A DNA stretch of 30,915 bases. It comes from a virus. Made by a program: the position numbers and the translations under genes. The stretch is taken from positions 1 to 30,915 of IMG/VR virus record IMGVR_UViG_3300044631_000918. One strand, written 5' to 3'. Below the pieces are notes generated by a model. That model ran no database searches. It saw nothing but the letters and a program-made list of their open reading frames with translations, and had not been told where the DNA came from. Of this stretch, positions 1 to 30,915 are shown piece after piece. Numbering within the stretch: position 1 is the stretch's first letter; every line of letters starts with the position of its first letter.

Positions 1-119
1 ACGCGCTCGGCTCCAGAGAGTTCGAGTTCCTTCGCGAGCGCGATAGCCTTCCGACGCTCGCGCTCGACGATCGCGTTCGAGAGACCGATCCGCTCGCGGA
101 CCGTGAGAGGACGGAAACG
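1..119. repeat. Left copy of terminal direct repeat (circular closure)
   Basis: Bases 1-119 match 30797-30915 over their whole length except base 105 (g) against 30901 (a). The repeat lies inside a coding frame that runs on unbroken when the ends are joined. It therefore marks circular closure of the assembly (or a circularly permuted genome) rather than a true terminal repeat. The single difference falls on the third base of a leucine codon. Confidence 0.93.
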
Positions 120-167
120 GTACGCGGTTCCTCCCGCGTGAAACTCAAAGGACGCTGCGAGGTTCAT
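1..167 (-). CDS. Tail assembly chaperone (gpG-like), 5' part
   Basis: This is the start of a 136-residue protein whose reading frame continues at 30796 once the contig is circularised. ATG at 165-167 overlaps the TGA of the preceding gene (ATGA). Joined length 167 + 244 nt is 137 codons, exactly in frame. The protein begins MNLAASFEFHAGG and is helical and charged. Its place between the major tail protein and the tape measure, plus the frameshift signal at its 3' end, identifies it as the short tail assembly chaperone corresponding to lambda gpG. It would bind the tape measure during tail assembly in the cytoplasm. Sequence similarity alone would not identify it; the call rests on position and on the frameshift. 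Confidence 0.8.
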   Translation of the reverse strand, partial: MNLAASFEFHAGGTAYRFRPLTVRERIGLSNAIVERERRKAIALAKELELSGAER

Positions 168-442
168 CGGATTCGAAGCCTTTCTACCAGTCGAACGAAG
201 GGATCGTCCGCGTTCACTTCCGAGACGATGCTGTCGACGGATCCCGCTCGACGGATCGTAGCGTCTGCGACGTTGTCCGGCTTCGTTCCTTGCGCGAGAA
301 GCGCGACTCGTAGAGCCTCAGTCTCCGCCATTGCTCCCGGCGTGATCCGTCGCGTCCAGACGATACCGCTCCGCTCTGCGATCGTGACGATCCAGTCGTC
401 TCCATTCGGAGAGATGAGAGTCCCGACCTTCCCGAGCATCAT
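164..442 (-). CDS. Small tail-region protein of unknown function
   Basis: This 92-residue protein starts at the first of two adjacent ATG codons (440-442), overlapping the stop of the major tail protein gene as ATGA. It ends in an ATGA overlap with the tail chaperone gene. No signal peptide or membrane segment is visible. The N-terminal half looks beta-rich (GKVGTLISPNGDDWIVTIAE) and the C-terminal half helical. Small genes between the major tail protein and the chaperone pair are common in siphoviruses but vary in function. I do not recognise the family. Confidence 0.75.
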   Translation of the reverse strand: MMLGKVGTLISPNGDDWIVTIAERSGIVWTRRITPGAMAETEALRVALLAQGTKPDNVADATIRRAGSVDSIVSEVNADDPFVRLVERLRIR

Positions 443-855
443 TGCATCCAAGTAACCGCGACGGCGGTTCCGTCGCCGGTCTCGAAGTTCGCGGTGACGG
501 TCGCGTCGCCGGACTTGTCGGAGTTGAACGCGAACGAGTCCATACCGACACCGGAGACGATCTTCGTGTTCGTTCCGTAGAGAGAGAGCGTGAGCGAGAC
601 GGTCGATGTCTTCGACCAAAAGATCGTGCTCGGAGTAGTGACTCCCGTACTCGTCGCGTCGACGAGCATGATCCCATTCAGCGAGCCGGCGACGTTGAGG
701 AAACCGTATCGAACGCGCTTCCCTGCGTCTCCGAACGCTGTCACGTCCGACTTCGTGCGCGAGAGATTCGCAGCGAACGAGCGGACTTTCATCACGGTTT
801 CACTTCCGATCGTGACGTTCCCGTCGTTTCCGACGACGTATGTATCGACTGGCAT
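439..855 (-). CDS. Major tail protein
   Basis: This 138-residue beta-rich protein starts MPVDTYVVGNDGNVTIGSE and continues with a pattern typical of short siphophage tail-tube subunits (alternating Thr/Val strands, a GDAGKRVRYGFLNVAGS segment, C-terminal VTANFETGDGTAVAVTWMQ). It would polymerise into the tail tube around the tape measure. A good Shine-Dalgarno (TTAGGAG) precedes the ATG. It lies after the connector and tail-terminator genes and before the chaperone pair, exactly where the tube protein is expected. The family is inferred from position, size and composition. Confidence 0.78.
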   Translation of the reverse strand: MPVDTYVVGNDGNVTIGSETVMKVRSFAANLSRTKSDVTAFGDAGKRVRYGFLNVAGSLNGIMLVDATSTGVTTPSTIFWSKTSTVSLTLSLYGTNTKIVSGVGMDSFAFNSDKSGDATVTANFETGDGTAVAVTWMQ

Positions 856-3014: not shown

Positions 3015-3233
3015 TCAGGACTCCTTCGGTTTCTTCATCGGTCGCTTCGGCGGATCCGTAGAGGACGCGAAGAGCGGAGCCGCAGCGACGACGCGCTCGA
3101 GATGTCCTGAACGGATCCAAGGTTCCGCGATGCTCGTCTCGAGGTTGATTCGAGTCCCCGGTCGAAGATCTCGACGACCCGTCGCCGGATCGTAGATCGA
3201 GAACGGACGGAGGACGATCAGTAGGTCGAGCAT
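3015..3233 (-). CDS. Small head-region protein of unknown function
   Basis: This 72-residue protein starts at ATG 3231-3233 and overlaps the end of the glycosyltransferase gene by 16 nt. It has a short hydrophobic start (MLDLLIVLRPFSIYDPATG), an LRPGTRINLE segment and a basic, proline-rich tail (STDPPKRPMKKPKES). Similar short proteins between capsid and connector genes occur in many siphoviruses without a known role. I do not recognise the family. Confidence 0.7.
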   Translation of the reverse strand: MLDLLIVLRPFSIYDPATGRRDLRPGTRINLETSIAEPWIRSGHLERVVAAAPLFASSTDPPKRPMKKPKES

Positions 3234-4336
3234 TCCTCCGGCCTCCCGTCCTCATGGTATTTCGAGAGGTATTGATGTCGGACCGCGAGATCGTCCGCCG
3301 GCCAAGAGATGATGCATTGAAGATGTCCGATCCGGACCTTCGGACAGACCGCGACTCGTCCGCCATGCTCGCGGACTTTGTGCCAGAAATAGATGTCGTC
3401 GTCGACGCGATTCTCTTCCCAACGACCCTCGGAGTTTGGTTGACCTAGAAACCAAGGCTTCGGGATCTTCGCGATCGCGTCGCATCGGATGAGCGTCGCT
3501 CCGAAGTGTCCGTTTTTGATGTCGAGAGCCTCTTCGAAAAGTTCGTTCGACATGATCTCGCGACGATTCGTCCCGTCTTCGTTCACGAACTGGACGAGAC
3601 ACGAATCGCGATCGCGTCCGATCTGGAGAGGACAGAGAGCCGCGATGTCTGGATTCTCCTCCATCACTTGCCAGAGCCGCAGAACGTCTCGAGCGTCGAA
3701 GATCGAATCGTAGTCGATCGTCAAGATGTACTTCGACTTCCCTTCGCGAACGACTCCCTCCATCAATCTCTGGAGACATTGTCCCCAAAAGACGCCGGTC
3801 GACTTCGTGAACGGCATCCCGAGATGCGCGACCGTGTCGAGGATATGCGCGAAAGTGTCGGTCCATGCGATGCGAGGGAGAGACATGATCGCGTGAACGT
3901 TCAGCGGTAGCGTCGGATCTGGTCGCGCTCGCTTCTTCACCGTGACGGAGATCCGACCGCGATTCTCTTTCCAGTTGAGCGAGCCTTCTCCTCCTCCGAC
4001 GATCTCGAATCCCGCCATGTTGAGAACTTCCGAGATCTTCCGTCGATTGAAGACCGCCTGAGTCATCCCGCGAGGACCGCAAAGCATCGGCTCCGGATCT
4101 CCTCCTCCCTTCGTGTAGATCTCGACGACCTCGTCGAAGTCGCAGACAGAGAGACGGAGTGTTCCTCCGTCGCGGAGGTATCCGTTCCACTTGCGAAGCG
4201 TCTCGAGTGTCTGAAGGTACGGAATGCGATCGAGCGTATCCGTCGCGTCGATTTCATCGAGCGATTTCGGTTCGCGATGCGCGAGCGCGTCCTCGATTTC
4301 GAGGAAGCGAGCGATGTCTTTCTCTCTCTCGTTCAT
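3218..4336 (-). CDS. GT-A glycosyltransferase with partial methyltransferase-like N-terminus
   Basis: This 372-residue protein has two parts. Residues about 40-135 look like the C-terminal half of a class I SAM-dependent methyltransferase (LRKWNGYLRDGGTLRLSVCDFDEV, with no glycine-rich SAM-binding loop). Residues about 145-372 look like a GT-A glycosyltransferase, with YILTIDYDS (208-211) as the metal-binding D-x-D type motif. The start at ATG 4334-4336 follows AGGAG, and the longer frame upstream overlaps a terminator and is rejected. It has its own -10-like box behind a terminator, so it may be expressed separately from the capsid genes. It might glycosylate virion or host surface components; the substrate is unknown. 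Confidence 0.72.
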   Translation of the reverse strand: MNEREKDIARFLEIEDALAHREPKSLDEIDATDTLDRIPYLQTLETLRKWNGYLRDGGTLRLSVCDFDEVVEIYTKGGGDPEPMLCGPRGMTQAVFNRRKISEVLNMAGFEIVGGGEGSLNWKENRGRISVTVKKRARPDPTLPLNVHAIMSLPRIAWTDTFAHILDTVAHLGMPFTKSTGVFWGQCLQRLMEGVVREGKSKYILTIDYDSIFDARDVLRLWQVMEENPDIAALCPLQIGRDRDSCLVQFVNEDGTNRREIMSNELFEEALDIKNGHFGATLIRCDAIAKIPKPWFLGQPNSEGRWEENRVDDDIYFWHKVREHGGRVAVCPKVRIGHLQCIISWPADDLAVRHQYLSKYHEDGRPEECSTY

Positions 4337-4357
4337 AGTGTTTCTGCTCCTGCGCGG

Positions 4358-4363
4358 ATCATA
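4358..4363 (-). promoter_or_regulatory. Candidate -10 box (TATGAT) for the glycosyltransferase/tail operon
   Basis: TATGAT matches the sigma70 -10 consensus at 5 of 6 bases. It lies 21 nt upstream of the glycosyltransferase ATG and just beyond the preceding terminator. No convincing -35 is seen, so it is a candidate only. Confidence 0.4.
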
Positions 4364-4370
4364 CCCAAGG

Positions 4371-4402
4371 AAAAGAGCGCGAGACCTTTCGGTCCCGCGC
4401 TC
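4371..4402 (-). terminator. Rho-independent terminator after the capsid genes
   Basis: On the minus strand a 12-bp stem (GAGCGCGGGACC / GGTCTCGCGCTC) with a GAAA tetraloop is followed by TTTTCC. One pair is G.U only when read as minus-strand RNA, which fixes the direction. It lies 29 nt after the stop of the capsid-associated gene. Confidence 0.88.
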
Positions 4403-4430
4403 CGGAGATAGAAAGATCCGTTTCTCTCGA

Positions 4431-4862
4431 TCAGAGACCGATCGCGTTCGCTGCGCCGGCTGCGGCTGCGTCTGAGACACCGTCCGCAGGATTCGAGAGT
4501 TCCGCGATGATCGCGCTACCGATTCCGCCGGTCCCGTGAGTAAAGGTCGCTCGGAGGAAACGCTTTCGACCTCGGAGGTCGACGTTCCAGATCACCTTTG
4601 CGAGACTGGTCGCGTTCGTAGTTGCTGAGCCGGTCCAGTCCGTTCCCTGAATGTAGCCGGCGAAGGTAGCGAAAGAACCGGTCGAAACGTCGCCTTCTTC
4701 GAGTTTGTTGTTCGTACCGCTCGAGACCGTACCCGTCGAGGACGAGAGACAGAGGATCTTCATAAAGTTGAAGCCGAGCGTGTCGAACTCCGCCGAGATC
4801 GTCGAGAGTGTGTTCGTCGTTGCGTTGATCGCTCCGACGATTGTCTTTGAGTTTTGTCGCAT
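4431..4862 (-). CDS. Capsid-associated (decoration-type) protein, copy 1
   Basis: This 143-residue Ser/Thr/Ala-rich, beta-rich protein is encoded 18 nt after the major capsid gene and is the last gene before a terminator, the usual position of a head decoration or minor capsid protein. ATG 4860-4862 follows a strong GGGGAGGA. It is clearly homologous to the protein at 22555-22968. Shared blocks include DT-GF-F near the start, STGT, GTDWTGSATTNAT versus GTDYTLSASTNAS, RGRKRFLRATFTH versus LGKRRYLKATIEH, and NPADGVS versus DPVDGVS. Decoration is inferred from position; no experiment-backed family is recognised. Confidence 0.72.
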   Translation of the reverse strand: MRQNSKTIVGAINATTNTLSTISAEFDTLGFNFMKILCLSSSTGTVSSGTNNKLEEGDVSTGSFATFAGYIQGTDWTGSATTNATSLAKVIWNVDLRGRKRFLRATFTHGTGGIGSAIIAELSNPADGVSDAAAAGAANAIGL

Positions 4863-11806: not shown

Positions 11807-12126
11807 TCAGACTTCGGAGCGATGCGCTCGATCTCGACGACCTCTTCGCGGATCGTCTCCTCGCTCCGCTCCTTCTGTCCGAGGATCTGCTTTCCGAGCC
11901 AGATCAGCATCGCGACGTTTCCCTCGCTTGCCTTCTTCCATTGAAGCCGGCGAAGACTGGTCTTCATCTTCGCGGATCCCTTCGCGATCGCTTCGCGACA
12001 GTCCGCGCGTTTCTGGAGCGTTCGATCGGAGCATCCTACGAGGAAGCCGATCTCCTCCTGAGTGCAACCGATCGCGGCTGCGGCTTCGATCTGTCGGAGG
12101 TCAAGTTCGAGTCGCGGTCGAGCCAC
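11803..12126 (-). CDS. terS: Terminase small subunit
   Basis: This 107-residue protein starts MARPRLELDLRQIEAAAAIGC and has a helix-turn-helix (TQEEIGFLVGCSDRTLQKRAD) followed by a helical oligomerisation region (WKKASEGNVAMLIWLGKQILGQK), the standard small terminase pattern. It recognises viral DNA and loads the large subunit, whose gene follows with a 4-nt overlap. The start is GTG at 12124-12126, inside the last 26 nt of the methyltransferase gene. Confidence 0.9.
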   Translation of the reverse strand: MARPRLELDLRQIEAAAAIGCTQEEIGFLVGCSDRTLQKRADCREAIAKGSAKMKTSLRRLQWKKASEGNVAMLIWLGKQILGQKERSEETIREEVVEIERIAPKSE

Positions 12127-13297
12127 GTTCCGCCTTCCTTCCGGTTAGTTTCTCCCAACGTGAGACGATGACATCGCAATACGCGGGAGAGATTTCGAGA
12201 CCGAAGCAGCGACGCTTCAGTTGCTCGGCTGCGAGAAACGTCGATCCAGATCCTCCGAACGGCTCGAAGACGAGACCGCTCGGAGGACATGAGTTCCCGA
12301 TCGCTCGAGCCGGTAGAGCGACTGGTTTCTGCGTCGGATGTTCGTAGTCGCTCGAAGAGTCTCTGCTGATCTGCCAGACATCGGACGCGGCTTCCTCCGT
12401 CCTCGCTCCGTACCATTTCTCGAGCGATCCTCCGCCGGACTTGTATCCGTGAAAAATGATCTCGTATTGATTGTGATAGCCGTTCGGCTTCATCGTGAAG
12501 CCGTTCTTCTTCCAGATTAAATGTCTCGGAAGTTGCCGACAATGCTTCTCGAATAGTTTCTGATAGAGGTACAGGTTTCCTTCACCTCCGCAGAAGTAGA
12601 GCCGCGCGTCGTCCTTCGTCGCGATTGTAACTGCGAGATCGAAAGAGAACGGAATCGCGGTCTGCGTGAGATCGCCGGCGATCATCGTCGGTCTTCCGTT
12701 TTTGCTCCCTTGAATGTTGACACCGTACGGAGGATCGGTGAAGACGACATCAGCCTTCTCTCCGTTCATCAATCGCTCGACATCCTCAGACTTCGTCGAG
12801 TCTCCGCAGAGCAAGCGATGATCTCCGAGAATCCAGAGGTCGCCGCTCTTCGTGATCGGATCGACTGGAGCGTCTGGAACTTCGTCCTCCGTCACTTCAT
12901 CGGGAGCGAGTAGAGCGTCGATCTCCTTCGCATCGAATCCGGTCGCGAGCGCGAGATCCTCATCCTCGATCTGGAGAGCCGCGAGAGTCTGCGAGAGAAC
13001 GTCATCGTCCCACTCCGCGAGTTCACTCGAGCGATTGTCCGCGATCGCGTACGCGGTCGCTTCGCTTCCCGAGAGAGGAGATCGGACGATCGCGATCTCT
13101 TTCCATCCGAGAGACTTCGCAGCCGCGAGAGTTCCGTTTCCGGCTCGGACGACTCCGCTCGCGTCGACGACGATCGGCTTTTGCTGTCCGAATCGCTGAA
13201 GACTCGACCGGATCGCTCCGAGGTTCTTCTCGTCGTGTTTCCGAGCGTTCGCCGGATCGAAGACGAGCGTGTCAATCTTCACGAGTTCCGTCTTCAT
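12101..13297 (-). CDS. ParB-domain DNA methyltransferase (beta-class, DPPY)
   Basis: This 398-residue protein has an N-terminal ParB/Srx-like domain (about 1-110; VRAGNGTLAAAKSLGW and AYAIADNR are typical). The methyltransferase domain follows, with TDPPYGV (DPPY at 188-191), HPTQKP (320-325) and the SAM-binding FEPFGGSGST (344-353). Motif IV before motif I means the beta class. DPPY suggests methylation of adenine N6 (or cytosine N4). Such ParB-methyltransferases are common next to phage terminases and may protect phage DNA or mark packaging sites. No cognate endonuclease is adjacent. Confidence 0.92.
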   Translation of the reverse strand: MKTELVKIDTLVFDPANARKHDEKNLGAIRSSLQRFGQQKPIVVDASGVVRAGNGTLAAAKSLGWKEIAIVRSPLSGSEATAYAIADNRSSELAEWDDDVLSQTLAALQIEDEDLALATGFDAKEIDALLAPDEVTEDEVPDAPVDPITKSGDLWILGDHRLLCGDSTKSEDVERLMNGEKADVVFTDPPYGVNIQGSKNGRPTMIAGDLTQTAIPFSFDLAVTIATKDDARLYFCGGEGNLYLYQKLFEKHCRQLPRHLIWKKNGFTMKPNGYHNQYEIIFHGYKSGGGSLEKWYGARTEEAASDVWQISRDSSSDYEHPTQKPVALPARAIGNSCPPSGLVFEPFGGSGSTFLAAEQLKRRCFGLEISPAYCDVIVSRWEKLTGRKAERGSTATRT

Positions 13298-13965
13298 GCT
13301 TCCTCCGCGTTTAGTTGCTCGATGATCTTTCGCGCTCGAGACTCCGACTCGTAACGTATCTCGGCTGCGAAGTGTCGAGCGTTTTTCGCGTCGACGAGTG
13401 ACGGATGAATCCACCAGTCCTCAACGGGTACGAGTCCGTGTCGACCGCTCTCATATCTCGCGATCATCCGGACGTCTTCCGCGACGCGCTCGTATCCGAA
13501 GCCTTCGAGGATGCCGTTCATCGCGAACTTTACGATCGAGTTTCCCCGATAGCGATCATGCTCGACCGTGAGAACTCGGAAGAGAACTCGATCGAGCGGA
13601 AGTCCAGAGAGACAAGACAGAGTCACTTCCGGCGGCTCGAGATCGAGCGAGAGAAAGTCGATCGTGTCATCGTCTTTCTTCGCGAGTTCGACGATCGCGT
13701 CGACGACCTTCCGATCGAGAGCGTCTCCGAAGATCTTGTTCGCGCTCGATCGCTTCTCGATGAGCGCGTCCTTCGTCGCGATATCCGCGAGGATCCCCGA
13801 CCAACCAAAGAACCGCTCGAGAGTGAAGGTATTCGAGAACTCCTTCGGATCGCCGGCTCCGAGGTCGACGAAGGTTCCTCCGATCTTTCCGTCGAGCGCG
13901 AGCGCGACGAAAGCATCCTGTCCGGCTTGCGCGGTCGACTTCACGTCGATTTCTTCCTTCTCCAT
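13294..13965 (-). CDS. FkbM-family SAM methyltransferase
   Basis: This 223-residue protein has the FkbM (Methyltransf_21) architecture: AQAGQDAFVALALDGK near the start, SAM motif FVDLGAGDP (32-40), WSGILADI, DFLSLDLEPPE and a late VEHDRY segment. FkbM enzymes usually O-methylate sugars or small molecules. The ATG follows AGGAGAGACACA, and its stop overlaps the DNA methyltransferase start (ATGA). With the glycosyltransferase at 3218-4336 it may belong to a glycan-modification set. The target is unknown. Confidence 0.8.
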   Translation of the reverse strand: MEKEEIDVKSTAQAGQDAFVALALDGKIGGTFVDLGAGDPKEFSNTFTLERFFGWSGILADIATKDALIEKRSSANKIFGDALDRKVVDAIVELAKKDDDTIDFLSLDLEPPEVTLSCLSGLPLDRVLFRVLTVEHDRYRGNSIVKFAMNGILEGFGYERVAEDVRMIARYESGRHGLVPVEDWWIHPSLVDAKNARHFAAEIRYESESRARKIIEQLNAEEA

Positions 13966-22554: not shown

Positions 22555-22968
22555 TCAGCCGATCGCGAGCGTATCGGTCCCGGCTTCGGTCGCGGAAGAA
22601 ACTCCGTCGACTGGATCCGTAAGGACCGCGTTCAGTTGGCATCGGCCCGAGGTCGCGTGTTCGATCGTCGCCTTGAGATAGCGACGCTTCCCGAGCATCG
22701 AGACCGCGAAGATAATCTTCGGTTTCGTCGATGCGTTCGTACTCGCGGAGAGAGTGTAGTCCGTTCCCTGAACGAGTCCGGGGATCGCGATCCAAGTCGA
22801 ATTATCGTCGGACTGCTCGATCTTCGTATTCGTCGTGAGTGCGCCGGTCGACGCGCTCGAGAATATCACTCGAGCGAAGCGGAAACCTTGCGTGTCGACT
22901 GAGCCGGTAAGAGCCGAAGAACTCGACTCGTTCATCAAGACGGACTTCGTGTTCTGGAAACTTCTCAT
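22555..22968 (-). CDS. Capsid-associated protein paralog, copy 2
   Basis: This 137-residue beta-rich protein is homologous to the protein encoded next to the major capsid gene (4431-4862). Shared blocks are DTQGFRFARVI, STGAL, GLVQGTDYTLSASTNAS, LGKRRYLKATIEHATSG and LTDPVDGVSS. It stands alone in the early region behind the strongest promoter in the genome (23084-23113) and is followed by the ATGGA leader. Its role could be a second decoration protein or an exapted copy. The ATG has only a weak GAGAGA Shine-Dalgarno. Confidence 0.7.
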   Translation of the reverse strand: MRSFQNTKSVLMNESSSSALTGSVDTQGFRFARVIFSSASTGALTTNTKIEQSDDNSTWIAIPGLVQGTDYTLSASTNASTKPKIIFAVSMLGKRRYLKATIEHATSGRCQLNAVLTDPVDGVSSATEAGTDTLAIG

Positions 22969-28587: not shown

Positions 28588-29394
28588 TTAGAAGTTTCCA
28601 GAGATGAGACCAAACTCGGACAGAATCGGGAACGGCTGAACGTATCGCACCCATCCAGCGTAGGAGCCGCGCTGCGCGGTTACTTCGAGATCGACCTTCC
28701 CGCTCGCGTTTCGTCGCGGGACTTGAATCATGTGATAGTAAGGGTCGAACGAGAAGCGATGAGTGAGCGAGTACAAGCCGACTCCGATTCGTCGACCAGA
28801 GCATCCCTCATAGAGAAGCGAACCTTCAGGTACTCCGAGAAACGTACTCTGATTTCTAGTCGCGACCGAAAATCGAATGTTTGCGGAACGCTCCGAAAGA
28901 GATACCGCCGAGACCGTCTCTTCAATAACGAGAAGATGCTGATCGACGAAGACCGTCGTCGGAACTCCGCCGGAGTCGATCGGCTTGCCGGCGATGTCTC
29001 GATCGTCTGGAGTTCCTCCCTGAGTAAGAAGACCCGGACTTACTCGATAGAGTTCGCGCGGTACTCCCTGATACTCGAAGGAGATCTGAAGGTATCCCGG
29101 CTCGGAAGGAGCCGAGATCCCCGTCGGATCCGCGCTCTCGTAGTTGAAGACGACGCGCCAAGTTCGCGACGAGTCCGCAAGATGCGTCATCGTGTAGGAG
29201 GTCGCGTAGAGCGTCTTCGATCCGGGGAAGAGTTCTCCGACCGCCGGCAAACCGCCTACTCCGAGATAGATCTGATCCGGTTCCGTGATCGGAGACGCAT
29301 CGTCCCAAACGTGAAACGTTCGCGTCCCCGTCACTTTTCCGCCACTCGTCGAGATCTCTCTCGACTCCATCGACTCTTCTACGGAAACCGTCAC
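28588..29394 (-). CDS. Distal tail protein
   Basis: This 268-residue beta-rich protein is encoded immediately after the tape measure (GTG 29392-29394, GTGA overlap), the place of distal tail or baseplate proteins. It contains GTRTFHVWDDASPITEPDQI near the start and PYYHMIQVPRRNASGKVDLE late. The family is not recognised by motif, so the call comes from gene order. Confidence 0.65.
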   Translation of the reverse strand: MTVSVEESMESREISTSGGKVTGTRTFHVWDDASPITEPDQIYLGVGGLPAVGELFPGSKTLYATSYTMTHLADSSRTWRVVFNYESADPTGISAPSEPGYLQISFEYQGVPRELYRVSPGLLTQGGTPDDRDIAGKPIDSGGVPTTVFVDQHLLVIEETVSAVSLSERSANIRFSVATRNQSTFLGVPEGSLLYEGCSGRRIGVGLYSLTHRFSFDPYYHMIQVPRRNASGKVDLEVTAQRGSYAGWVRYVQPFPILSEFGLISGNF

Positions 29395-30362
29395 GCGATA
29401 CCTCCTTGTGCGATCGAGCCGGCTTTCGCTCGGATCTGTCGGATCTCCGCGAGGATCGCGGCGTCGATCGCTTTCTTCTCTGCGTCGCTATACGCGGCGA
29501 AGCGAAACGTCCCGAGCCGAGTCTGAGCCGTTCCCGTCTCGCTCGCGACGCTCTCTCTCCTTTGCTCGAGTTTCTCGATCTGCGTTCTCGAATCCTCGAG
29601 TTGCTTCTCGCGGATCGCCTGAAGCCGTTCGGATTCCCTCGATGCTGCTTCCTTCTCCTTCGACTCGATCTCGCGATACTCGCGCTCGAGATTCTGGTCG
29701 ACGAGTTGACGCTCCTTCGCGTATCGACTCTCGATCGACCGCTCCTGAGCCGCGCTCCGAGCCGCGTCGAGTTCTTCCTGCTTCTGCTTCTGCAGTCGAG
29801 CGATCTCGTCTTCGGCTTTCAGCCGCGCAGCCTTCCGAGCGTCTCCCTCGCTCTCCGCGCTCTGGATCGCCATCTTGCGGACGATCTCCTCCTCGCGCGT
29901 TCTCTGCTTCTCGATGTCTTCGCGGATCGCTCGCTCGGTCTTTCCGCGCTCCTCCGCAGCCTTGCGGACTTTCTCCGCCGTCTCGAGTTGCTCGGCTTGC
30001 AAGCGACGCTGCTCGGAGAATCCGAGACCCGCGTCGATGCCGGCGGAGATGAGATCCGCGATCGTGCCGACGATCGGAAGCGACTTCAGACCAGAGAGGA
30101 GAACGTCTTCCCACTCTGCTCCCTCGGCTCCGGCTTTGAGCGCATTCGCGAGACCTCGAGCGATCTTGTCGAACGCGATACCGCCGGCGATCTTCGCACC
30201 GATGCCACTCGAGAAACTGCTCGCGGCTCGGTCGAACTCCTGCGCGAGACCGCGACCGGCGGTCCGTCCGGCTGCGGTCGACTTATCCGTAACCTCGCGG
30301 AGTTGTCTCTCGAGGTCCGCGTAGTTCGCGGAGACCGAGATCTCGATTTTTCCTGCGTTCAT
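29391..30362 (-). CDS. Short tape measure protein
   Basis: This 323-residue protein starts MNAGKIEISVSANYADLERQ (ATG 30360-30362, ATGA overlap). Hydrophobic stretches follow (ASSFSSGIGAKIAGGIAFDK, LPIVGTIADLISAGIDAGLG), then about 180 residues of charged coiled coil. This is the tape measure layout and position (after the chaperone pair). At about 1.5 angstrom per residue it predicts a tail near 50 nm, short for a siphovirus. The upstream part of the open frame overlaps the chaperone gene and is not used. Confidence 0.82.
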   Translation of the reverse strand: MNAGKIEISVSANYADLERQLREVTDKSTAAGRTAGRGLAQEFDRAASSFSSGIGAKIAGGIAFDKIARGLANALKAGAEGAEWEDVLLSGLKSLPIVGTIADLISAGIDAGLGFSEQRRLQAEQLETAEKVRKAAEERGKTERAIREDIEKQRTREEEIVRKMAIQSAESEGDARKAARLKAEDEIARLQKQKQEELDAARSAAQERSIESRYAKERQLVDQNLEREYREIESKEKEAASRESERLQAIREKQLEDSRTQIEKLEQRRESVASETGTAQTRLGTFRFAAYSDAEKKAIDAAILAEIRQIRAKAGSIAQGGIA

Positions 30363-30556
30363 GCTCGACCCTCGACGAAGCGTCTCGTCCAAGGTTCATC
30401 GGACACTTCGCCTCCGTGCATCGCGAGGGATAGATGTCGTTCGAACTCCGCGATCGTAAGGTCGAGAGGATTCCCGAGACCGGGAGCCGTTCTCGCGATG
30501 AGATGAGCCTCCGAGATCCAGTCGCGAGCCGGCTCCGGCATCGCGACCGGATTCAG
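30359..30556 (-). CDS. Frameshift extension of the tail chaperone (gpT-like)
   Basis: After a -1 slip on GGGAAAC the ribosome would read CTG (30554-30556) onward, adding 65 residues (LNPVAMPEPARDWISEAHLI ... DEPWTRRFVEGRA) to the 136-residue chaperone and giving a 201-residue fusion. An independent start is unlikely: ATG 30539-30541 has no Shine-Dalgarno, and ATG 30619 lies inside the upstream frame. Its stop overlaps the tape measure start. In lambda the GT fusion binds the tail tube protein and recruits it to the tape measure. Confidence 0.82.
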   Translation of the reverse strand: MNPVAMPEPARDWISEAHLIARTAPGLGNPLDLTIAEFERHLSLAMHGGEVSDEPWTRRFVEGRA

Positions 30557-30562
30557 TTTCCC
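30518..30562 (-). promoter_or_regulatory. Programmed -1 frameshift signal
   Basis: The slippery heptamer GGGAAAC (30556-30562), in frame as G GGA AAC, lies directly before the TGA of the short chaperone. After a 5-nt spacer comes a 10-bp stem (CCGGTCGCGA / TCGCGACTGG, one G.U) with a 13-nt loop that can fold further. Lambda uses GGGAAAG at the same place. Confidence 0.88.
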
Positions 30563-30915
30563 TCGACGCTCTTCTTCTCTTCTCGCTTTGCAGGATTCTC
30601 GATCTCGACGTTCAGACATCGCGCCGCGACTACCGAGAGTTCTCCCGGCTCGACGGCTTCCGCGATGCGATCGACATCGGAGACTTCACCAACGATCGCA
30701 AGCCGCAGGACCGCGAGACTTCCCTCGAGCGTGAAACACGAAAGTACGACACTCGAGACCTTCTCAGCCTCAGAGACGGCGCGAGCCGCGAACTCGACGC
30801 GCTCGGCTCCAGAGAGTTCGAGTTCCTTCGCGAGCGCGATAGCCTTCCGACGCTCGCGCTCGACGATCGCGTTCGAGAGACCGATCCGCTCGCGGACCGT
30901 AAGAGGACGGAAACG
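30553..30915 (-). CDS. Tail assembly chaperone (gpG-like), 3' part
   Basis: This is the continuation of the gene that starts at base 167 on the left end; 30797-30915 duplicates 1-119. The joined protein has 136 residues: VEFAARAVSEAEKVSSVVLS, SLAVLRLAIVGEVSDVDRIA and the charged end IENPAKREEKKSVEGN before TGA (30553-30555). The slippery heptamer covers its last codons. Gene callers working on the linear contig would lose this gene at both ends. Confidence 0.8.
   Translation of the reverse strand, partial: RFRPLTVRERIGLSNAIVERERRKAIALAKELELSGAERVEFAARAVSEAEKVSSVVLSCFTLEGSLAVLRLAIVGEVSDVDRIAEAVEPGELSVVAARCLNVEIENPAKREEKKSVEGN
30797..30915. repeat. Right copy of terminal direct repeat (circular closure)
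   Basis: Matches 1-119 at 118 of 119 positions. Base 30901 is a where base 105 is g, changing a leucine codon from CTC to CTT. Joining the copies gives a circle of about 30,796 bp. Confidence 0.93.

What the first reader, a model, noticed from the sequence alone, without database searches (positions are those of the whole stretch)
30518..30562. Lambda-like -1 frameshift with slippery site and stem, split by the contig ends
GGGAAAC, a 5-nt spacer and a 10-bp stem-loop lie at the end of the short tail chaperone, in the correct frame to fuse to the next one. The mechanism is known from lambda G/GT, but annotation of this linear contig would miss it because the upstream gene crosses the ends.
Basis: partly seen in the sequence, partly recalled or inferred. 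Interest (0 to 1): 0.68.

Follow-up and report, generated by a model that had tools for sequence, protein, structure and literature searches.

The report
Phage tail-chaperone ribosomal frameshift site
An uncultured phage carries a conserved signal that makes some ribosomes slip back one base and fuse two short tail-assembly proteins; the trick is known from phage lambda, but this family pairs it with a strong RNA hairpin and an unusually short tail-ruler gene.

Summary
On the minus strand, GGGAAAC (30562-30556), in phase as G_GGA_AAC, abuts the stop of a 136-codon ORF (G). A 5-nt spacer and a 10-bp stem (12 bp when folded) follow. The -1 frame continues 65 codons (T) to the tape-measure gene. 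G crosses the contig ends, which share a 119-bp repeat with one mismatch.

Relatives settle the meaning. Of 80 IMG/VR loci fetched with T patterns that do not include the heptamer, 71 have in-phase GGGAAAN, 8 (one lineage) have A_AAC_CCT, and 1 is cut off before the site. Elsewhere in the G genes, in-phase GGGAAA occurs 0 times in 3333 codon junctions. In 4 of 26 lineages T has no ATG/GTG/TTG before its conserved core. Folding after the site exceeds synonymous recodings in 26 of 26 lineages (mean z -2.4); lambda (+0.94) and KL1 (+0.12) lack this.

This is a -1 programmed frameshift of tail assembly chaperones: a known mechanism in a protein family poorly covered by PHROGs and Pfam. Distinctive are the Asn-type heptamer, the stem and a 323-466-aa tape measure. 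One distant relative (L006) lacks the heptamer. Shift efficiency and the fusion protein are not shown.

The parts
30556..30562 (-). slippery heptamer GGGAAAC, read G_GGA_AAC in the G frame
   Evidence: conserved in relatives
30553..30555 (-). stop codon TGA of G, directly after the heptamer
30516..30552 (-). predicted downstream stem-loop (12-bp outer stem 30552-30541 / 30527-30516, inner GCCG/CGGC helix), 3 to 5 nt after the heptamer
   Evidence: excess over synonymous recoding z -3.47
30553..30915 (-). G (short tail assembly chaperone), residues 17-136 and stop
   Evidence: AlphaFold model of the 99% identical L001 protein, pLDDT 89
120..167 (-). first 16 codons of G on the other contig end (ATG 167-165)
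   Evidence: sequence; same N-terminus in L001-L003
30359..30556 (-). T extension in the -1 frame: 65 codons read after the slip (CTG onward) plus stop; conserved core RDW(I/L)SEAHLIARTAPGLGNPLDL
29391..30362 (-). putative tape measure protein, 323 aa, its ATG overlapping the T stop (ATGA)
   Evidence: weak PHROG tape-measure match E 0.093, none with the shorter start at E 0.01; name rests mainly on position
439..855 (-). tail (tube) protein upstream of G
   Evidence: phrog_365 tail protein E 0.00033; DUF2001 phage tail tube E 0.047, below its cut-off
1..119 (.). end repeat, left copy (one mismatch at 105)
30797..30915 (.). end repeat, right copy (mismatch at 30901)

Best explanation
[quoted passage not shown] Most ribosomes stop at TGA after G_GGA_AAC and make G (136 aa). 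A fraction slips one base back with both tRNAs (to GGG_AAA), helped by the stem-loop just downstream, and makes the 201-aa fusion GT. By analogy with lambda, G and GT coat the tape measure protein and the T part recruits the tail tube protein. Shown here: sequence, phase, conservation, absence of usable T starts in some lineages, excess RNA structure at the site. Inferred: that the slip happens, its efficiency, that the stem stimulates it, and the roles of G and GT.
For: In-phase GGGAAAN at the G/T junction in 71 of 80 T-loci: 50 C, 14 A, 5 T, 2 G; scan patterns were downstream of the heptamer. It is found in 25 of 26 k-mer lineages against 0 of 3333 in-phase GGGAAA elsewhere in G. It also holds in loci found otherwise: L098, L102, L105, L111 and L191. 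In L032, L078 and L080 the G stop lies 54 nt downstream, yet the heptamer stays near the T core. T has no ATG/GTG/TTG before its core in 4 of 26 lineages (L057, L074, L076, L082). RNA after the site: dinucleotide z mean -1.81 against -0.29 for 281 control windows, p 2e-8; synonymous recoding z negative in 26 of 26, mean -2.4, repeat -2.12 against -1.12 for the next-best window. G sits between a tail protein and a tape-measure-like ORF. G of 3 of 22 members matches phrog_344 tail assembly chaperone, best E 0.0014.
Against: No direct expression data. Across 15 junctions a fixed pairing pattern is not supported: RNAalifold finds no common structure and the count is no better than shuffles, because the stem shifts register between lineages; within one register only 1 of 10 pairs changes on both sides. 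Individual lineages such as L013, L071, L074 and L085 have little excess structure. L006 has no heptamer. KL1 uses the same heptamer before a stop without a stem, so a stem is not required in general. The window's own G and T match no PHROG or Pfam family, and the fold search is weak.
Confidence: 0.94

Rival explanations
1. T is translated separately, from its own start codon or by re-initiation/coupling at the end of G; the heptamer is incidental.
For: The window has T-frame ATGs at 57 nt before and 21 nt after the first heptamer base; L023, L031 and L044 have an ATG 6-9 nt after it. L006 lacks a heptamer and has an ATG in frame.
Against: Neither window ATG has a Shine-Dalgarno match of 4 nt or more; the downstream ATG is AAG in L001 and AGA in L003. 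4 of 26 lineages have no start at all before the core. It does not explain in-phase GGGAAAN in 25 of 26 lineages.
Confidence: 0.03
2. G and T are one gene split by an assembly or sequencing indel.
For: The contig is a single metagenomic assembly with imperfect ends.
Against: The same -1 offset recurs in all 79 T-loci that reach the site, from many metagenomes.
Confidence: 0.005
3. Transcriptional slippage rather than ribosomal slippage makes the fusion.
For: It too would fuse the frames.
Against: The site holds only a run of three A; transcriptional slippage needs long homopolymer runs (recalled, not tested).
Confidence: 0.01
4. The frameshift is real, but the stem reflects GC-rich coding of the conserved T core and does not stimulate it.
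For: The 3' arm overlaps codons for the conserved RDW or EAH residues; fixed-pair covariation is absent across lineages; KL1 and lambda do without.
Against: Synonymous-codon recoding keeps the amino acids and still leaves z below 0 in 26 of 26 lineages, the most structured of the windows tested.
Confidence: 0.2

Closest known systems
Phage lambda G/GT tail assembly chaperone frameshift (G_GGA_AAG)
   Same: Overlapping ORFs between tail tube and tape measure genes, -1 slip on GGGAAA near the end of G, T reached only as a fusion (annotation of NC_001416; review PMC5009743, passages).
   Different: Lambda's heptamer ends in G (Lys codon) and lies 15 nt before the G stop; no excess downstream structure (z +0.94) and an 853-aa tape measure. 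Here AAC (Asn), directly at the stop, with a strong stem and a 323-aa ORF. No sequence match to lambda proteins: tblastn of G and of T against 50,697 phage records gave none at E 1.
Burkholderia phage KL1 gp18/gp19 (GGGAAAC immediately before TGA)
   Same: Identical heptamer and TGA (passage of PMC3483164; sequence).
   Different: No excess downstream structure (z +0.12), T extension about 124 codons, 1272-aa tape measure, an extra gene before the tape measure.
HCTV-1 (haloarchaeal siphovirus), G_GGA_AAC, and Caulobacter phage Colossus, GGGAAAC
   Same: Same heptamer for the tail chaperone pair (passages of PMC5009743, and PMC3556154).
   Different: Not compared at sequence level here.
HK97 gp13 and YqbN tail assembly chaperone structures (2ob9, 3klu)
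   Same: Appear at ranks 6 and 1 of a re-alignment of Foldseek's own hits (Z 3.5 and 4.8). That YqbN is a tail chaperone is recalled.
   Different: Z is within noise; no Foldseek PDB hit below E 0.001.

Membership tests
Programmed -1 ribosomal frameshift of phage tail assembly chaperones (G/GT type) | two ORFs offset by -1, just upstream of the tape measure gene and downstream of the tail tube gene | tested here: met
   tube match E 0.00033, tape measure match only E 0.093
Programmed -1 ribosomal frameshift of phage tail assembly chaperones (G/GT type) | in-phase X_XXY_YYZ heptamer near the end of the first ORF, conserved | tested here: met
   71 of 80 T-loci GGGAAAN, 8 A_AAC_CCT, 1 cut off; 0 of 3333 elsewhere; L006 without
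Programmed -1 ribosomal frameshift of phage tail assembly chaperones (G/GT type) | second ORF has no initiation site of its own | tested here: met
   no ATG/GTG/TTG before the core in 4 of 26 lineages; in the window itself two ATGs without a Shine-Dalgarno match
Programmed -1 ribosomal frameshift of phage tail assembly chaperones (G/GT type) | G and GT both made in a fixed ratio, absent from virions | not testable with these tools
   needs protein data
Lambda gpG/gpT protein family by homology | sequence similarity to a described tail assembly chaperone family | tested here: inconclusive
   window G and T: no PHROG or Pfam match; 3 of 22 family G proteins match phrog_344 at E 0.0014 to 0.053; no tblastn match in phages
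Tail assembly chaperone fold (HK97 gp13 / YqbN) | N-terminal strands plus helical domain like 2ob9 / 3klu | tested here: inconclusive
   confident model but best Z 4.8 to 3klu and 3.5 to 2ob9, within noise; BFVD hits include chaperones at E 0.035 and weaker
Stem-stimulated -1 frameshift signals | stable structure starting 5-9 nt after the heptamer | tested here: met
   window: stem 3-5 nt after; excess in 26 of 26 lineages against synonymous recoding; covariation not supportive across lineages. The 5-9 nt spacing is recalled; the window's spacing is at or just under its lower limit

The most novel reading that the evidence does not exclude
This family of uncultured short-tailed siphoviruses uses a stem-boosted tail chaperone frameshift whose efficiency is tuned upward because the tape measure is short: fewer G molecules per GT are needed on a 323-466-aa ruler than on lambda's 853-aa ruler. 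The Asn-type heptamer, weaker in bacteria than lambda's Lys-type, is compensated by the stem, and one lineage has moved the slip to A_AAC_CCU, one codon downstream.
Probability: 0.25. Interest if true: 0.55.

Novelty: new member of a known kind. Interest (0 to 1): 0.32.

Why it matters
It adds a large group of uncultured phages, barely covered by PHROGs or Pfam, to the G/GT frameshift rule. It gives annotators a reliable marker, GGGAAAN before [RD][WF]..AH..A..PGLGNPLDL, for a chaperone pair that would otherwise appear as unrelated hypothetical ORFs. The combination of short tape measure and strong stem gives natural material for an untested idea, that the G:GT ratio scales with tail length.

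Tried and rejected
Own-start and re-initiation of T: rejected for the family because 4 of 26 lineages have no start before the core; not formally excluded for the window. Indel artefact: rejected (79 loci that reach the site). Covariation as proof of one conserved stem: failed across 15 junctions, weak within one register (10 distinct of 13 rows). Identification by sequence family: failed for the window's own proteins. Fold search: no Foldseek PDB hit below E 0.001, one BFVD hit below 0.001, an uncharacterised protein. Relatives of L006 by its T part: only itself. Host: one genome-contig hit (L111, a Rhodobacteraceae MAG contig), possibly a binned virus, so no host is claimed. A first regular expression allowed only A or T as Y and missed AAACCCT; one search corrected it. 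In some searches the L060 lineage was entered under GGCAAAC by hand.

Rows dropped: L077 (contig starts inside T) from site counts; sequence-identical junction windows counted once; alignment A5 holds 22 rows, leaving out the G of L044, L054, L081, L086 and L088, whose starts were unclear; lineages are k-mer clusters (8-mer Jaccard over 0.15), a rough grouping. In one search, 6 of 7 named phage records fetched were examined; HK97 and phiC31 had no XXXYYYZ in the last 80 nt by my rule, so no structure score; TM4 was fetched and not used. All 26 lineages come from one T-based scan, and A2 was seeded from the first relatives. The five hold-out loci are not all independent (L111 resembles L023; L102 resembles L105).

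Literature: 61 and 88 searches (listings and abstract starts seen); passages only of PMC5009743, PMC10885494, PMC3483164, PMC3556154, PMC6316719. No paper was read whole. In the listings of these five searches I saw no paper on this family or on a link between frameshift stem and tape-measure length; most subscription papers, including Xu et al. 2004 (recalled and cited inside those passages), were not read.

Full report
What is there. All genes named here are on the minus strand. The contig ends share 119 bp (1-119 and 30797-30915) with a single mismatch, so the 30,915-base record is probably a circular or terminally redundant genome of about 30,796 bp cut inside gene G. G starts at ATG 167-165, runs to 120 (16 codons), and continues from 30915 to the TGA at 30555-30553: 136 codons, matching the uninterrupted G of L001 (408 nt). 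The mismatch falls on the third base of a Leu codon and is silent. GGGAAAC (30562-30556) is read G_GGA_AAC immediately before that TGA. After a -1 slip the next codons are CTG AAT CCG GTC..., giving 65 residues to the stop at 30361-30359, which overlaps the ATG of a 323-aa ORF (30362-29391) in an ATGA arrangement.

Is it more than chance? By itself the heptamer is common: 8 copies of GGGAAAC on the minus strand. The decision comes from relatives. G found 4 close loci and, as profiles, 7 and 29 plus one genome contig. T, with patterns RD[WF][IL]SEAH and PG[LI]GNPLD that lie downstream of the heptamer, found 89, of which 80 were kept. In those 80 loci 71 have an in-phase GGGAAAN at the end of G (50 C, 14 A, 5 T, 2 G), 8 near-identical loci of one lineage (L060-L064, L066-L068) do not, and L077 is cut off before the site. 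Grouped by shared 8-mers they make 26 lineages including the window: 25 with GGGAAAN, 1 without. In-phase GGGAAA occurs 0 times in 3333 other codon junctions of the G genes. In L032, L078 and L080 the G stop has moved 54 nt downstream but the heptamer keeps its place near the T core. Loci outside that set agree: L098, L102, L105 and L111 and L191.

The exceptions. The L060 lineage reads GCG_GCA_AAC_CCT_CTG_TAG; the only in-phase XXXYYYZ there is A_AAC_CCT, one codon downstream, and T has no start between 114 nt upstream of the site and the core. It looks like a moved slippery site; nothing shows that it works. L006 (G 30% identical to the window's) has no in-phase XXXYYYZ in the G stretch searched and an ATG in the T frame; it may initiate T separately. 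A scan with its T part found only itself.

Can T start on its own? In 4 of 26 lineages (L057, L074, L076, L082) no ATG, GTG or TTG lies between the preceding in-frame stop and the T core. The window has two T-frame ATGs, one upstream of and one inside the stem, neither with a Shine-Dalgarno match of 4 nt or more, and the second is AAG in L001 and AGA in L003.

The stem. The window's downstream RNA folds into a 12-bp stem with an inner helix. For 26 lineages the 60 nt after the heptamer have mean dinucleotide z -1.81, 11 below -2, against -0.29 for 281 control windows of the same loci (p 2e-8). Recoding the T frame with synonymous codons gives z below 0 in 26 of 26, mean -2.4, 14 below -2. In a repeat with upstream and downstream windows the site scores -2.12; the next are TMP+30 at -1.12 and G-300 at -1.03, most others near 0. 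Against this, the pairing is not conserved base by base: RNAalifold finds no common structure in 15 junctions, a named structure does no better than shuffles, and in a subgroup of one register 95% of cells pair with 1 of 10 pairs changed on both sides. I read this as a stem kept in place and strength but rebuilt in different registers. Lambda (z +0.94), KL1 (+0.12), P2 (-1.05) and D3 (-1.55) show no significant excess by the same test.

What G and T are. Upstream lies a tail protein (phrog_365, E 0.00033), downstream the ORF taken as tape measure (weak match, E 0.093). In 23 of 26 lineages the latter is complete in the locus, at 323-466 aa (3 were cut off). The window's G and T match no PHROG or Pfam family; 3 of 22 family G proteins match phrog_344, tail assembly chaperone, at E 0.0014 to 0.053. 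G and T have no tblastn match in 50,697 phage records at E 1. AlphaFold gives a confident model of L001 G (pLDDT 89, two strands then helices); structure searches are weak, with YqbN (3klu, Z 4.8) and HK97 chaperone (2ob9, Z 3.5) among the top six of a re-alignment and no significant PDB hit by Foldseek.

How it works. The likely mechanism is that of lambda: a small fraction of ribosomes slips at the heptamer and makes GT; the review passage describes G binding the tape measure and T the tube protein, at 30:1 in lambda, with no stimulatory signal apparent (PMC5009743). The same review notes that G_GGA_AAG is shift-prone in E. coli and treats AAC second codons as mammalian-like, with G_GGA_AAC used by archaeal HCTV-1. 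Here 19 of 26 lineages have AAC and 2 have AAG. A stem may make up for the weaker heptamer or raise the GT share for a short tail. That is inference; KL1 has GGGAAAC without a stem, and GGGAAAC is also reported for KL1 and Colossus in print.

Verdict. The finding is real and correctly interpreted, a new member of a known kind, with a conserved stem and a short tape measure as its distinctive features.

Noticed in passing
1-119 and 30797-30915: End repeat of 119 bp with one silent mismatch (105/30901); the mismatch may be why the record is not treated as having exact end repeats. Genome probably about 30,796 bp.
   Followed up: partly
L060:2983-2992, L061:1869-1878: Lineage with GGCAAACCCT in place of GGGAAAC; in-phase A_AAC_CCT is the only XXXYYYZ, a possible moved slippery site.
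   Followed up: partly
L006:3324: Distant relative without a heptamer; T-frame ATG inside G, possibly separate initiation.
   Followed up: partly
29391-30362: Putative tape measure of only 323 aa (323-466 aa across the family), suggesting short tails.
   Followed up: partly
4434-4862 and 22558-22968 (-): Two paralogous proteins (38% identity over 138 columns), one next to the capsid gene, one far away among unrelated ORFs.
   Followed up: partly
12101-13300 (-): ParB-like domain fused to a DNA methyltransferase.
   Followed up: no
3218-4480 (-): 420-aa ORF of unknown function (phrog_1574, E 3.7e-7) inserted between capsid and head-tail connector genes.
   Followed up: no
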